From a candidate division WOR-1 bacterium RIFOXYB2_FULL_45_9 (GTDB lineage Bacteria; Margulisbacteria; WOR-1; O2-12-FULL-45-9; XYB2-FULL-48-7), in contig MEUD01000001.1 of the NCBI GenBank assembly GCA_001771575.1, forward strand, positions 1,489,277 through 1,553,276: 64,000 nt of DNA. Direction: 5' to 3'. Every line of letters begins with the position of its first letter. Positions within the stretch are counted from its first letter, which is position 1. The notes below the pieces were generated by a model. The model was not told where the DNA came from and did not search any database. It saw nothing but the letters and a program-made list of their open reading frames with translations. This document shows, in pieces, positions 2,238 to 13,645 of the stretch. A program made the translations under genes and the position numbers.

Positions 2238-2272
2238 AAAAGGGCTCCGACGTTAAGTCGGGGCCCTTTTTG
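2238..2272 (+). terminator. Intrinsic terminator after glutamate synthase-like gene
   Basis: AAAAGGGCTCCGAC (2238-2251) pairs almost completely with 2257-2270 around the loop GTTAA. The 3' arm ends in a T-run. Confidence 0.9.
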
Positions 2273-9334: not shown

Positions 9335-9901
9335 ATGAATGGGCTTCTTCTCAATGTCTGCTGTGCTCCGTGCGCTCTGCCGATCATTGATCATCTGCTT
9401 GCCGTTGAGCGTCTGCCCATTGGTTCTTTGGCGTTATATTTTTACGGGCCAAATATTTTTCCCGAAGCCGAATACTTGAAGAGGTTGGAAGAGACCAGGC
9501 GGATTGCCGTCCAGTACGGGCTTGAATTTGTTGAGGGAGGGTATGACCATAACAGCTGGCTGACTTATCTGAAAGAACGACTGGACGCCCCCTTGGAGAG
9601 TTACGGGGAAAATAGCGAGCGCTGTCAACTTTGCTTCAAATTTCGCTTATTGACCACCGCCGAATATGCCGCCGAAAATAATTTTCAGGAGTTTGCGACG
9701 ACCTTGAGCGTTAGCCGGTTTAAAGACACGACAGCGATCAATGACTTTGGTGAGGAGCTGGCCAGGGAATCTAAATTGAAATACCGAACTTTTCCGCTTG
9801 ATGCGGACGAGGCCCATAAAAAGGGACTAGAGCTATCGAGACAATATGGGGTTTATCGTCAGAAATATTGCGGGTGCGAGTTCAGTTTGCCACCCACATG
9901 A
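9335..9901 (+). CDS. queH: Epoxyqueuosine reductase QueH
   Basis: 188 residues with the QueH (DUF208) pattern: CCAPC near the start (residues 9-13), CQLCFKFRL in the middle, TTLSVSRFKD, and the terminal YCGCEFS. QueH performs the last step of queuosine synthesis, reducing epoxyqueuosine in tRNA anticodons, using Fe-S and other metal-bound cysteines; it is the non-homologous counterpart of QueG. The end overlaps the convergent bioD end by 20 bp. Confidence 0.93.
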   Translation: MNGLLLNVCCAPCALPIIDHLLAVERLPIGSLALYFYGPNIFPEAEYLKRLEETRRIAVQYGLEFVEGGYDHNSWLTYLKERLDAPLESYGENSERCQLCFKFRLLTTAEYAAENNFQEFATTLSVSRFKDTTAINDFGEELARESKLKYRTFPLDADEAHKKGLELSRQYGVYRQKYCGCEFSLPPT

Positions 9902-10490
9902 GCTTGCCGATCACCGGGACGCCGCTCAATTCTTCGATCATTTCAGCGTTGCTTTTTTCAGAAAGTTCTTTCCCCCGGAAGCTGTTCAGGATTATCCCCA
10001 TGATCTCGATCCCTTGTTCCCGCAAGGCGCTGACTGTTAATAGAGTATGATTGATGGTCCCCAGGCCGGCTCGGGCGACAATAATGGTCGGCAGTTTTAA
10101 GTCTTTGATCAGGTCAATGACGCAGTAGTTTTTGTTGATCGGAACAGCCACGCCGCCGACCCCTTCGACCAGGACCAGGTCGTGTTTTTTCTCCAGCTCC
10201 TTGAAGGCCGAGAATATTTTCTTAAGGTCGATCTTCTTTTTTTCCAGCCGGGCGGCGGGGAGTGGGGCGAGGGGATGCTTCAGGTGGATAGGGTTGATTA
10301 GGTGAATAGGGTCGTTTATTTTAAGCCTCTTTTTTAGAAGGAGAGCATCATTGTCCTTGGCTGGGCCGCAGGAGATCGGCTTCATAATCCCGACGTCGCT
10401 CCCCTGGCGGCGGAATTCCTCGGCCAGATATTGAGTAACGTAGGTCTTGCCTACGCCGGTATCAGTTCCCGTAATGAAGATGCCAGGCAT
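9882..10490 (-). CDS. bioD: ATP-dependent dethiobiotin synthetase
   Basis: 202 residues. P-loop GTDTGVGKT (residues 7-15), KPISCG and VEGVGGVAVPI are the ATP-, DAPA- and carbamate-handling motifs of BioD, which closes the ureido ring to give dethiobiotin. An SD (GAGGAG) lies just before ATG, inside the end of bioF, so bioF and bioD overlap by 40 bp. Third gene of the leftward bioB-bioF-bioD operon. Confidence 0.95.
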   Translation of the reverse strand: MPGIFITGTDTGVGKTYVTQYLAEEFRRQGSDVGIMKPISCGPAKDNDALLLKKRLKINDPIHLINPIHLKHPLAPLPAARLEKKKIDLKKIFSAFKELEKKHDLVLVEGVGGVAVPINKNYCVIDLIKDLKLPTIIVARAGLGTINHTLLTVSALREQGIEIMGIILNSFRGKELSEKSNAEMIEELSGVPVIGKLMWVAN

Positions 10491-11611
10491 TCGATCTCCT
10501 CCTTAGTGTGTTCACTGGTGATGGTGATCCGCAAGCGGGCTTCTCCATCCGGGACGGTTGGTGGGCGGATGGCGGAAACGAAAAAGCCCCGGTCAAAAAG
10601 CTGTTGTGAGACCCGCATCGTCCGCTCGTTGTTGCCGATGATTATTGGAAATATCGGGCTTTGCTGCTCCAAGGAACCGGAGGCTGAACGCCTCGGTTCC
10701 TTGGAAACCGCGACGTTTAGTCGCAGGTTTCCAAGAAGAGTGTTGGCCAAACAAATATTTTGTTGCAACCTCTTTTTTCTTCCCGGTTCCGTTTCGATCA
10801 CTTCCAAAGCGGCAAGAGCGGCGGCGCAAGCGCTGGGAGGAAGAGCGGTCGAATAAATATAACTGCGGGCCTTGTTCCGCAGAAAATCGATCAGTTTCGC
10901 GTCGCCGGCTATAAACCCGCCAAGACTGCCTAGCGCTTTGGATAAAGTTCCCATGATGATCTCGGGTTCACCGGGGAGTTCGACCACGCCGGTGGCGTGA
11001 GCGTAGTCGGCCATGGTGATGGCGTTATACTTTCTGGCCAGCTCGACTATCTCGGCTAGCAGGGCGAGATCGCCATCCATGCTGAAAACGATGTCAGTGA
11101 CGATTAACCGTTTTTTGAATTTGGCTGATCGTTTTAAGACTGCTTCCAGAGAAGCTAAGTCGCGGTGTTTATAAACTTGAAGCTTAGCTTTAGATAATCG
11201 ACAAGCGTCAATAATGCTCGCGTGGTTCAGCCGATCGATAATGATCGTGTCTTCTTCAGTTGTTAACGCGGTGATCGTTCCCAGATTGGCTTGGTAACCG
11301 GTCGGAAAGAGGGTGGCGGCTTCCCGGTTTTTATAAGCGGCCAGTTTTTTGGTCAGCCCTTCGTGATATTTTGTCCAGCCGCAGATCAGAGGGGAGCCGG
11401 TCGCCCCGGCGCCGAATTCCTTGAGAGCGATGGTGGCCCGTTCGATGACCTTTGGGTGATGGGCAAGGCCGAGATAATTATTGGAGCAGAAGTTCAGGAG
11501 CTTTTTGCCGTCAATTTCGATCAGCCGACCGGAGGTGTTTGCTGTTTTAACGGAGCGACGCAGTCCAGCTTGCTTCAGCTCAGCGAGTCCCTGGTCGATG
11601 AACTCTAGCAC
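10451..11611 (-). CDS. bioF: 8-amino-7-oxononanoate synthase
   Basis: 386 residues, a PLP-dependent alpha-oxoamine synthase: NNYLGLAHHP near the N-terminus, the PLP lysine in GTLSKALGSLGGF, and the conserved AIRPPTVPDGEARLRIT near the C-terminus. It condenses pimeloyl-ACP or -CoA with alanine. The start is GTG at 11611, overlapping the bioB stop by 7 bp. Odd feature: between LANTL and QQSPIFPIIIG the protein seems about a dozen residues longer than E. coli BioF (comparison from memory), and this stretch is encoded by two back-to-back 36-nt palindromes (10669-10735). Confidence 0.93.
   Translation of the reverse strand: MLEFIDQGLAELKQAGLRRSVKTANTSGRLIEIDGKKLLNFCSNNYLGLAHHPKVIERATIALKEFGAGATGSPLICGWTKYHEGLTKKLAAYKNREAATLFPTGYQANLGTITALTTEEDTIIIDRLNHASIIDACRLSKAKLQVYKHRDLASLEAVLKRSAKFKKRLIVTDIVFSMDGDLALLAEIVELARKYNAITMADYAHATGVVELPGEPEIIMGTLSKALGSLGGFIAGDAKLIDFLRNKARSYIYSTALPPSACAAALAALEVIETEPGRKKRLQQNICLANTLLGNLRLNVAVSKEPRRSASGSLEQQSPIFPIIIGNNERTMRVSQQLFDRGFFVSAIRPPTVPDGEARLRITITSEHTKEEIECLASSLRELIPA
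10669..10735. repeat. Pair of related 36-nt palindromes inside bioF
   Basis: 10669-10704 and 10700-10735 each fold into 15 bp with one bulged base and a 5-nt loop. Read in opposite orientations they match in plan: GGAA(A)CCG, a variable 4-bp segment with compensating changes (AGGC/GCCT versus CGAC/GTCG), loop GTTCA or GTTTA, then a bulge at the same place. They share CTTGG at their junction. They encode LGNLRLNVAVSK and KEPRRSASGSLE. Confidence 0.85.
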
Positions 11612-12594
11612 GTGGTTTTCTCGATTTCTAGGCCGAGCGCTTTGATCATGGCAAGGTCCTGCTCGGCCGATTGGCCGGACGTCGTTAAATAATTTCCTAC
11701 CAGGGTAACGTTTGCTCCGGCGATAAACATTAGCGGCTGGAGCTGACCGAGTGACTGTTCCCGTCCGCCGAAAAGCCCGATATCTTTGGTCGGCATAATA
11801 AAACGATAAGTCGCGATCAGGCGCAGAACCTCGAGCGGGGAGATCAACCGATGTTTGGCCGCCGCCGGGGTACCGGCGACCGGATTGAGAATATTGATCG
11901 GAACAGAATCGACGTCAAGTTCACGCAAGGCCATTGCCAGTTCTACTCTTTGTTTCAATGATTCTCCCAGATTAAAGATCCCGCCGGCGCAGACCGCTAC
12001 TCCTTCCGCTTTCGCGTTCTTGATCGTCTCGACCCGCTCGGCAAAGGTGTGGGTGGTGCAGACATTGGAGAAAAAACTTTCTGCCGCTTCAAGATTGTGA
12101 TGAAGCTTCTTCAGTCCAGCCGCTTTAAGTTGGCGAATAGTTGGCCGGTCCAGGATCCCAAGCGAGGCGCAGCGGTTCATTTTAGTTGTGTCGTTGATCA
12201 TTTTAAGGGCCCCCGAGATCTCGGCGATATCTTTTTCGGTGTTAACTCCTCGTCCTGATGTGACGATCGAAAAGCAGGTTGCTTGTTGCTCTTCTTCCGC
12301 TTTTTTGGCGGTCGCGGCGATCTCTTCGGCTGGGAGGAGGGGGTAGACCTCGGCGTTGGTCTGGTAATGTCCGGATTGAGCGCAGAAGGAGCAATTCTCA
12401 CTGCAGTGCCCCGATTTAGCATTAACGATCGAGCAGAGCCGGACCTTGTTCCCTTTAAAGCGCCGGCGCAAATGGTTGGCGGCGGCAAGGAGTTCGAACG
12501 TTTGCTCATCAGGGGTCGAGATCAGTTCCAGCGCTTCCGCTATAGCCAGCTTTTCCCCGCCAATTAGGCGATTCGCAAGAGATTGATGGTCCAT
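11605..12594 (-). CDS. bioB: Biotin synthase (radical SAM)
   Basis: 329 residues. The radical-SAM cluster motif CSENCSFC (in SGHCSENCSFCAQS) and the conserved NHNLE-type segment HHNLEAA identify BioB, which inserts sulfur into dethiobiotin. The start is taken as ATG 12594: TATAAT with a preceding TG (12601-12606, reverse strand) ends 6 nt upstream, and the protein then starts like family members. A longer reading frame would run into the neighbouring membrane-protein gene. First gene of the bio operon. Confidence 0.95.
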   Translation of the reverse strand: MDHQSLANRLIGGEKLAIAEALELISTPDEQTFELLAAANHLRRRFKGNKVRLCSIVNAKSGHCSENCSFCAQSGHYQTNAEVYPLLPAEEIAATAKKAEEEQQATCFSIVTSGRGVNTEKDIAEISGALKMINDTTKMNRCASLGILDRPTIRQLKAAGLKKLHHNLEAAESFFSNVCTTHTFAERVETIKNAKAEGVAVCAGGIFNLGESLKQRVELAMALRELDVDSVPINILNPVAGTPAAAKHRLISPLEVLRLIATYRFIMPTKDIGLFGGREQSLGQLQPLMFIAGANVTLVGNYLTTSGQSAEQDLAMIKALGLEIEKTTC

Positions 12595-12600
12595 AAAATA

Positions 12601-12606
12601 ATTATA
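12601..12606 (-). promoter_or_regulatory. -10 element of the bioBFD operon
   Basis: Extended -10 TGCTATAAT read on the minus strand, 6 nt before the bioB ATG. No convincing -35 or BirA-like operator was seen. Confidence 0.6.
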
Positions 12607-12613
12607 GCACCTT

Positions 12614-13645
12614 CTAAAACGCGTGGTTGTAATAGAAAGTGACAAAGCCACCTTCGGCGCCGATGCTGTAGTCTGCCCGTAAGATCATGGTTTGGAGATA
12701 TAGCCTGACCCCAACGCCATAATTGACCGCCCAGGAATTGAGATCAAAAAGGCCCGCCCGGTCGTAGACCCTGCCGCTGTCAAAAAGCAAAACCCCTCCC
12801 AGGGCCCAAATAATGGGGAAGCGATATTCCAGGTTGACCATGCTTGACCCATGTCCCCGGAAACGATACCAGGGGTAGCCGCGCAGATTGTCCCGACCGC
12901 CCAGGGTCGCGTATTCGTAGAGCGGGATCTTGTCTCCGCTTAATTGCGTGAGAGCCAGCCGGCCTGCCAGGGATTGATTGGCCAGGGGGAGAGGGAGCGT
13001 TCTGGTAAGTTCCCCCCTCCAGCGGACAAAACCGGCGGAGTTGAAGCCAAAGTCGATGGAATTGGCCAGTCCCCAGCCGGGGGCGGAAGGTTTATCCTCT
13101 TTTCCGTTAAGGAAAAAGCTCAGCACCTGGTAATTTCGCAGTTGATCTTCCATCTCCGGCGTGATCGGGTTGAGCTGGTTATTTATCTTGAAAAGCCGGT
13201 TGCTTGACGAATGGATCTTTAGGCCGAGCCGGAGCTGTTTGGTTACCGGCCTGGTCATGGCAAGTCGGAAATTGCCGTAATCATTATTATAGTTCGAGTA
13301 ATTTTGTGTTCCCATCCCCAGGCCATAGAAGCGGTCGTCAACCGCGGTCCCGACCGAGAGGGCCGCGTCGAAAGCGAGCGGCGATCCTGGAAAAGCTCCG
13401 GCCAGACTTATTTCCCTGGCGCCGCTGTCGACGAAATTAAAGTAAGCGTTAATCAATTCATCCCGCTGGAAAAGGTTGGCGCTGGCGCCAAACAAGCCGA
13501 CCATCGTGCCGATGGAAGAGTCATAAAAAGCGTAGGGGAAGACGTTGTATGAAAAGGCTTTTTCATCCGCCGATGCCGAAGGTTGCGCGAAGATCATCAG
13601 GCCGAGCAAGAGCAAGCAGGCCCGAAGCTTTTCTTGATAATTCAT
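12614..13645 (-). CDS. Omp85/BamA-type outer-membrane barrel protein
   Basis: 343 residues. After a signal peptide (about residues 1-26) the protein is made of alternating beta strands and carries LGGRDNLRGYPWYRFRG, the conserved loop-6 (V/I)RG(F/Y)-type motif of the bacterial surface antigen domain, plus a final aromatic strand FVTFYYNHAF. No POTRA repeats are present, so it resembles short barrel-only members rather than BamA itself. ATG 13645 is chosen over an upstream Met because TATAAT (13653-13658, reverse) lies 7 nt before it and a good signal peptide starts there. The gene lies between the two divergent bio gene sets. Confidence 0.85.
   Translation of the reverse strand: MNYQEKLRACLLLLGLMIFAQPSASADEKAFSYNVFPYAFYDSSIGTMVGLFGASANLFQRDELINAYFNFVDSGAREISLAGAFPGSPLAFDAALSVGTAVDDRFYGLGMGTQNYSNYNNDYGNFRLAMTRPVTKQLRLGLKIHSSSNRLFKINNQLNPITPEMEDQLRNYQVLSFFLNGKEDKPSAPGWGLANSIDFGFNSAGFVRWRGELTRTLPLPLANQSLAGRLALTQLSGDKIPLYEYATLGGRDNLRGYPWYRFRGHGSSMVNLEYRFPIIWALGGVLLFDSGRVYDRAGLFDLNSWAVNYGVGVRLYLQTMILRADYSIGAEGGFVTFYYNHAF

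What the first reader, a model, noticed from the sequence alone, without database searches (positions are those of the whole stretch)
10669..10735. Two related 36-nt palindromes placed back to back inside the bioF coding sequence
Each palindrome has 15 paired bases, a single bulge at the same place and a GTTYA loop. They lie in opposite orientation and share 5 nt. The central 4 bp differ by compensating changes, which implies a family kept by base pairing. One 36-nt unit is a multiple of three and would add 12 residues, about the excess over E. coli BioF judged from memory. This recalls the in-frame Rickettsia palindromic elements.
Basis: partly seen in the sequence, partly recalled or inferred. 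Interest (0 to 1): 0.65.

Follow-up and report, generated by a model that had tools for sequence, protein, structure and literature searches.

The report
REP-like hairpin dimer inside bioF
A pair of small mobile DNA hairpins, spread through genomes of the uncultured Saganbacteria (WOR-1) and linked to their own transposase, has landed inside a biotin-synthesis gene without breaking its reading frame, so that selfish DNA is now translated as part of an enzyme.

Summary
Window 10669-10735 holds two 36-nt hairpins (RNA fold z = -6.3). They belong to a dispersed family: 29 copies in this genome at E<=0.01, up to 91 in relatives. The family occurs in 29 of 31 WOR-1-class genomes and in 1 of 26 other genomes of the phylum. 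Twelve of 15 stem pairs show changes on both sides. The hairpins usually form divergent (-,+) dimers whose two halves almost never share an inner stem (1 of 59; 16 expected). Twelve of 13 transposases of one Y1 (IS200-like) clade carry a family hairpin at the 3' end, usually with an inverted one upstream, and hairpin loops differ between transposase lineages. So this is a REP/REPtron-like system, without the GTAG or CGTC tag. Many copies lie in frame in conserved proteins (BioF, IleRS, ValRS, MutS, GltB, a FAD oxidoreductase), using five reading frames. In bioF the insert is the whole dimer (66 nt, 22 residues), absent from most relatives, which carry nothing or other repeats there. Unexplained: the dimer is 92% identical between two bioF genes otherwise 62% identical.

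The parts
10669..10704 (-). Hairpin E1: CCAAGGAACC-GAGGC-GTTCA-GCCTC-C-GGTTCCTTGG (loop at 10685-10689, extra base at 10679)
   Evidence: 55.4 bits, E 2.4e-13 in the window; the model includes it
10700..10735 (+). Hairpin E2: CTTGGAAACC-GCGAC-GTTTA-GTCGC-A-GGTTTCCAAG (loop at 10715-10719, extra base at 10725)
   Evidence: 58.5 bits, E 2.9e-14 in the window; the model includes it
10669..10735 (.). (-,+) heterodimer; codes in frame for ...GNLRLNVAVSKEPRRSASGSLE... in BioF
10451..11611 (-). bioF (8-amino-7-oxononanoate synthase), open through the insert
   Evidence: PF00155 6.4e-56; BioF structures, e.g. 1bs0
9882..10490 (-). Neighbouring ORF, bioD-like (dethiobiotin synthetase), assigned by reading the sequence
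   Evidence: not tested with a profile
11605..12651 (-). Neighbouring ORF, bioB-like (radical SAM, CSENCSFCAQS motif), assigned by reading the sequence
   Evidence: not tested with a profile

Best explanation
The two palindromes are one non-autonomous, REP-like mobile unit: a heterodimer of hairpins in (-,+) orientation, of a family specific to Saganbacteria/WOR-1. The same hairpins bracket genes of one Y1 (HUH, IS200-like) transposase clade. Shown: the family, its covariation, the dimer rule, the transposase linkage, the in-frame copies in conserved proteins, and the lack of this insert in most relatives. Inferred: the Y1 enzyme recognises the hairpin in single-stranded DNA and copies or moves single hairpins or dimers to new sites. 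Copies that land in frame in a tolerant surface loop survive because five of the six frames of the element are open. In bioF the dimer sits in a length-variable segment just before the strand SPIFPIIIG and adds 22 residues without breaking the reading frame. Its role there is most likely none (tolerated selfish DNA).
For: Covariation: 12 of 15 pairs change on both sides, 275 such cells against 84 shuffled. Dimers: 58 of 65 neighbouring pairs are (-,+); identical inner stems in 1 of 59 dimers (16 expected) and 0 of 32 in one genome (8.6 expected). Transposase: 12 of 13 Y1 genes of the RKLWGR clade have a family hairpin at the 3' end, mostly with an inverted one upstream; none of 7 other Y1 genes does; loop type differs by Y1 lineage (GATATT in G000, TTCA/TTTA in G001/G021, ATTYA in G019). 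In frame: IleRS of this genome has a roughly 30-nt element absent from the congener and other relatives; the FAD oxidoreductase loop has a single hairpin, a dimer or nothing in different genomes; Pfam domains confirm the hosts. BioF.
Against: No transposition event or empty donor/target pair at the nucleotide level was seen for the bioF dimer. The only Y1 gene of this genome goes with the GATATT-loop subclass, not the GTTYA subclass of bioF, so the bioF copy may be immobile now. The Y1 proteins pass NCBIfam's IS200 cut-off but not its REP-transposase cut-off. No guide tetranucleotide was found. That the bioF site is a surface loop, and that the enzyme still works, were not tested.
Confidence: 0.86

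Rival explanations
1. A member of the Rickettsia palindromic elements (RPE) or of the CGTC-tagged REPs.
For: Short hairpins, divergent dimers, in-frame insertion into unrelated proteins, several frames used; same behaviour as RPE-4/6 as described in PMC3733652.
Against: No CGTC or GTAG at either foot above background in 223 elements; a dedicated Y1 transposase is linked, which CGTC REPs lack according to PMC3733652; restricted to WOR-1 as far as searched.
Confidence: 0.04
2. A functional RNA structure (attenuator, terminator or regulatory hairpin pair) of the bio operon that happens to lie in bioF.
For: Very stable fold in the bioF mRNA; the dimer is conserved in three bioF genes, at silent sites too.
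Against: Same hairpins in dozens of unrelated genes and intergenic sites; absent from bioF of other family members; no T run after it; no Rfam match near it.
Confidence: 0.04
3. Ordinary protein-coding sequence whose codons form palindromes by chance.
For: The segment is translated in frame.
Against: Fold z about -6; family of copies with compensating changes; peptide missing in relatives.
Confidence: 0.01
4. The family moves by other means (replication slippage, gene conversion, or another transposase) and the Y1 linkage only reflects Y1 elements using family hairpins as targets.
For: ISPpu9 is inserted into REPs (abstract of PMC8450116), so IS elements can use palindromes as targets; in G028 a dimer travels inside a larger repeated unit.
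Against: Fixed position of the hairpin at the Y1 3' end in 12 of 13 genes, inverted hairpin upstream in most, and loop subclass differing by transposase lineage.
Confidence: 0.08

Closest known systems
GTAG-tagged REPs, BIMEs/REPINs and their RAYT transposases (REPtrons)
   Same: 20-40-nt hairpins, inverted dimers, heterodimer preference, Y1 transposase gene flanked by the hairpins, lineage-specific hairpin types, some intragenic copies (PMC3733652, PMC6006769).
   Different: No GTAG/GTGG foot; the conserved part is core and loop (CCGMGRN-GTTYA) with outer arms that pair but are not conserved; transposase closer to the IS200 profile; candidate phylum outside the groups listed for GTAG repeats in PMC3733652.
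Rickettsia palindromic elements (RPE-1, RPE-4, RPE-6) and CGTC-tagged REPs
   Same: In-frame insertion in many unrelated proteins, dimers coding for 20-30 residues, loops of 4-5 nt.
   Different: No CGTC terminus; dedicated transposase linked; different sequence and lineage.
IS200/IS605-family insertion sequences and their non-autonomous derivatives
   Same: Y1 transposase of about 130-150 aa over the NCBIfam IS200 cut-off, hairpins near both ends.
   Different: The two end hairpins are inverted relative to each other as in REPINs; high-copy spread is of single hairpins and dimers rather than of whole elements.

Membership tests
GTAG-tagged REP / RAYT system | GT[AG]G tetranucleotide at the foot of the hairpin | tested here: not met
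   GTAG 0 of 223; GTGG 9 in all (both sides) against about 4 expected, at no fixed place
GTAG-tagged REP / RAYT system | Y1 transposase gene flanked by the repeats in inverted orientation | tested here: met
   12 of 13 RKLWGR-clade Y1 genes have the 3' hairpin, most an inverted one upstream
GTAG-tagged REP / RAYT system | Transposase matches the REP-associated tyrosine transposase profile | tested here: inconclusive
   45-57 bits against a cut-off of 80 for the clade tested; passes the IS200 model (cut-off 55)
GTAG-tagged REP / RAYT system | Multi-copy hairpins, often inverted dimers | tested here: met
GTAG-tagged REP / RAYT system | Transposase binds and cleaves the hairpin as single-stranded DNA | not testable with these tools
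   needs an in vitro assay
Rickettsia palindromic elements / CGTC REPs | CGTC terminus at one end | tested here: not met
   at or below background
Rickettsia palindromic elements / CGTC REPs | In-frame insertion in unrelated protein genes | tested here: met
Rickettsia palindromic elements / CGTC REPs | No associated transposase (as reported in PMC3733652 for CGTC REPs) | tested here: not met
IS200/IS605 family | Y1 (HUH) transposase | tested here: met
   PF01797, NF033573 over cut-off
IS200/IS605 family | Insertion 3' of a fixed tetra- or pentanucleotide without target duplication | not tested
   no clean empty site was aligned at nucleotide level

The most novel reading that the evidence does not exclude
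Once inserted, the hairpins are kept as hairpins by a DNA-level process such as template-switch correction between the arms. Stems lengthen into flanking DNA, orthologous in-gene copies keep perfect pairing while their amino acids change, and silent sites stay frozen while the host gene diverges. A class of translated DNA would then be held by its fold rather than by its protein.
Probability: 0.2. Interest if true: 0.75.

Novelty: new variant of a known kind. Interest (0 to 1): 0.56.

Why it matters
In-frame palindromes were made known in Rickettsia, and the CGTC repeats to which RPE-4/6 belong were reported to lack a dedicated transposase. Here a comparable in-frame family comes with a physically linked Y1 transposase whose lineages go with different hairpin subtypes, so the mechanism of spreading into coding sequence becomes testable in vitro. 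It also documents a REP-like system, apparently undescribed, in a candidate phylum, and warns that short repeated peptides in Saganbacteria proteins (GNLRLNVAVS, KPATERRGF, GNRDVQSQVS, ETATFSRRF, KPRRSVAGF) are mobile DNA, not conserved motifs.

Tried and rejected
A GTAG or CGTC tag was looked for and not found. A strict long-stem/short-stem rule for the two halves of a dimer was considered and dropped, since LL, LS and SS dimers all occur; the inner-stem difference rule held instead. Independent insertion of a common dimer at the same bioF site in G000/G001 and G010 looks unlikely, since the dimer junction occurs nowhere else in 31 genomes. The terminator-like hairpin at 2238-2270 (loop GTTAA) does not match the family model convincingly (11.9 bits, E 0.71). 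Viral contigs hold no copy of the pattern. No Rfam family matches. No held paper joins Saganbacteria with palindromic repeats, or Margulisbacteria/WOR-1 with repeats and transposases. A paper on protein-coding palindromes in Rickettsia (PMC186582) is not held.

Full report
What is there. The region 10669-10735 lies inside an intact ORF (10451-11611, - strand) that is bioF: PF00155 at 6e-56 and solved BioF/KBL/SPT chains as best structural relatives. It sits between bioD-like and bioB-like ORFs, which I assigned by reading the sequence only. Two hairpins of 36 nt overlap by 5 nt. Each has 15 pairs, one extra base on the 3' side after the fifth pair, and a GTTYA loop. The coding-strand RNA folds at -42.4 kcal/mol, z -6.35 against shuffles; the DNA gives z -6.2.

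It is a family. A loose pattern found further copies in this 1.67-Mb genome with zero control hits. A covariance model built from nine copies finds 29 in this genome at E<=0.01 under stricter filters, 41 at E<=1, and up to 91 in relatives. Of the 31 genomes of the same class, 29 carry the family; of 26 other genomes of the phylum one has a single weak match (E 0.0065). Contig lengths identify some nameless genomes: G004 is the WOR-1 MAG RIFCSPHIGHO2_01_FULL_53_15 and G010 is CG08_land_8_20_14_0_20_45_16. Viral contigs have none.

It is kept by pairing. In 127 distinct aligned copies, 94% of cells are paired, 12 of 15 pairs have changes on both sides, and there are 275 doubly changed cells against 84 in shuffles; sliding the partner by one column collapses all measures. 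This alignment was fitted to the model, so it leans towards the structure. Independently, pairing continues past the conserved GGAAACC at well above chance out to about 10 positions beyond the CC/GG core, although letters there are not conserved. The outer arms are thus complementary but free in sequence.

Anatomy of the dispersed unit. Of 65 neighbouring pairs, 58 are (-,+), with the 5' ends facing inward. The two hairpins of a dimer almost never carry the same inner stem: 1 of 59 non-redundant dimers against 16 expected, and 0 of 32 in G019 against 8.6. The window dimer (GAGGC + GCGAC) obeys this rule and is the commonest combination in G019. PMC3733652 reports preferential heterodimers in most REP families, says this has no obvious explanation, and suggests protection from SbcCD-type cleavage.

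A transposase goes with it. Y1 (PF01797) genes occur in 21 of 31 class genomes. Of 20 inspected, 13 belong to one supported clade (RKLWGR motif). Twelve of these have a family hairpin at the 3' end of the ORF, in some cases forming its last codons, and most have an inverted one upstream. None of the seven others does; some of those have their own unrelated hairpins. Loop type differs by lineage: GATATT around the only Y1 gene of this genome, TTCA/TTTA in G001 and G021, ATTYA in G019, GTTYA in the rest. GATATT copies are concentrated in this genus (11 in G000 and 5 in G001, one each in two other genomes). The proteins pass NCBIfam's IS200 model and fall below its REP-transposase cut-off. So this works like a REPtron, but the GTAG tag that defines classical REPs and the CGTC tag of the RPE-like ones are both absent. 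The enzyme-hairpin interaction itself is inferred.

In-frame residence. Forty-four of 123 element clusters in the fetched loci lie within ORFs of at least 120 aa; these loci are not a random sample and some short ORFs may be spurious. Pfam confirms conserved hosts: BioF, IleRS, a FAD oxidoreductase, a GltD-like protein, MutS (two genomes), GltB, ValRS, an AMP-binding enzyme, two radical SAM families, UvrD and others. The element is open in five of six frames and all five are used. In IleRS this genome has about 10 residues (KPAIEHRGL...) where most relatives have a shorter loop and the congener has an unrelated four-residue stretch. One loop of the FAD oxidoreductase holds a single hairpin here, dimers (some decayed) in five other genomes of three families, and nothing in G018 and G030.

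BioF itself. Between the helix ending ...LQQN and the strand SPIFPIIIG, the window protein has 32 residues. G002, G005 and the G010 paralogue have 7-9; G019 has the canonical 19 or so. The palindrome-encoded 22 residues occur only in G000, its congener G001, and one BioF of G010. Other relatives hold a variant hairpin (G003) or other palindromic repeats such as CCCTCTCCCTCTGGGAGAGGG. The site is a tolerant hot spot, and the insert is the dimer, not one unit.

What remains odd. The G000 and G010 dimers are 61/66 identical while the rest of the gene is 668/1074 (62%). At fourfold sites the figures are 12/14 inside and 39/101 outside. The exact junction is found nowhere else in 31 genomes, so a common source is likely. 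Local transfer, mis-binning of the short G010 contig, or conservation by structure are all open.

Judgement. Best reading: tolerated insertion of a REP-like heterodimer of a WOR-1-specific, Y1-linked family. The kind of system is known; the family, its lineage, its lack of a tag and its linked transposase together with heavy in-frame use make it a new variant.

Noticed in passing
window 2238-2270: Strong hairpin AAAAGGGCTCCGAC-GTTAA-GTCGGGGCCCTTTT after an ORF and ending in a T run: probably an intrinsic terminator with a loop reminiscent of the family (11.9 bits, E 0.71).
   Followed up: partly
bioF site in L009, L011, L012, L013: The same BioF position in other family members carries a different palindromic repeat (CCCTCTCCCTCTGGGAGAGGG type), also in frame.
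   Followed up: partly
L241 (FAD oxidoreductase of G025); L162: A second palindrome (TGCCTGCCGGCAGGCAGG or close variant) is nested inside a family hairpin, in frame in L241.
   Followed up: no
L040, L045, L054, L055, L064, L080, L089, L137, L141: Genome G028 has many identical copies of a roughly 137-bp unit (GGTTCCTCAGC...TGTTAACC) that carries a family dimer as cargo; no Y1 gene was found in that genome.
   Followed up: partly
L222 (G003), L231 (G025): Other Y1 transposase clades in WOR-1 are flanked by their own perfect hairpins (TATTCCCCAC...; ATACCCACGAT...), suggesting several parallel hairpin-transposase systems.
   Followed up: no
window bioF, after residue 210 or so: The window BioF lacks about 11 residues after the D-x-AHATG motif that the congener has; BioF of G005, G006 and G010 are similarly short there.
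   Followed up: no
bioF of G000 and G010 (L006, L008): Dimer 92% identical at DNA level, silent sites included, while the rest of the gene is 62% identical.
   Followed up: partly
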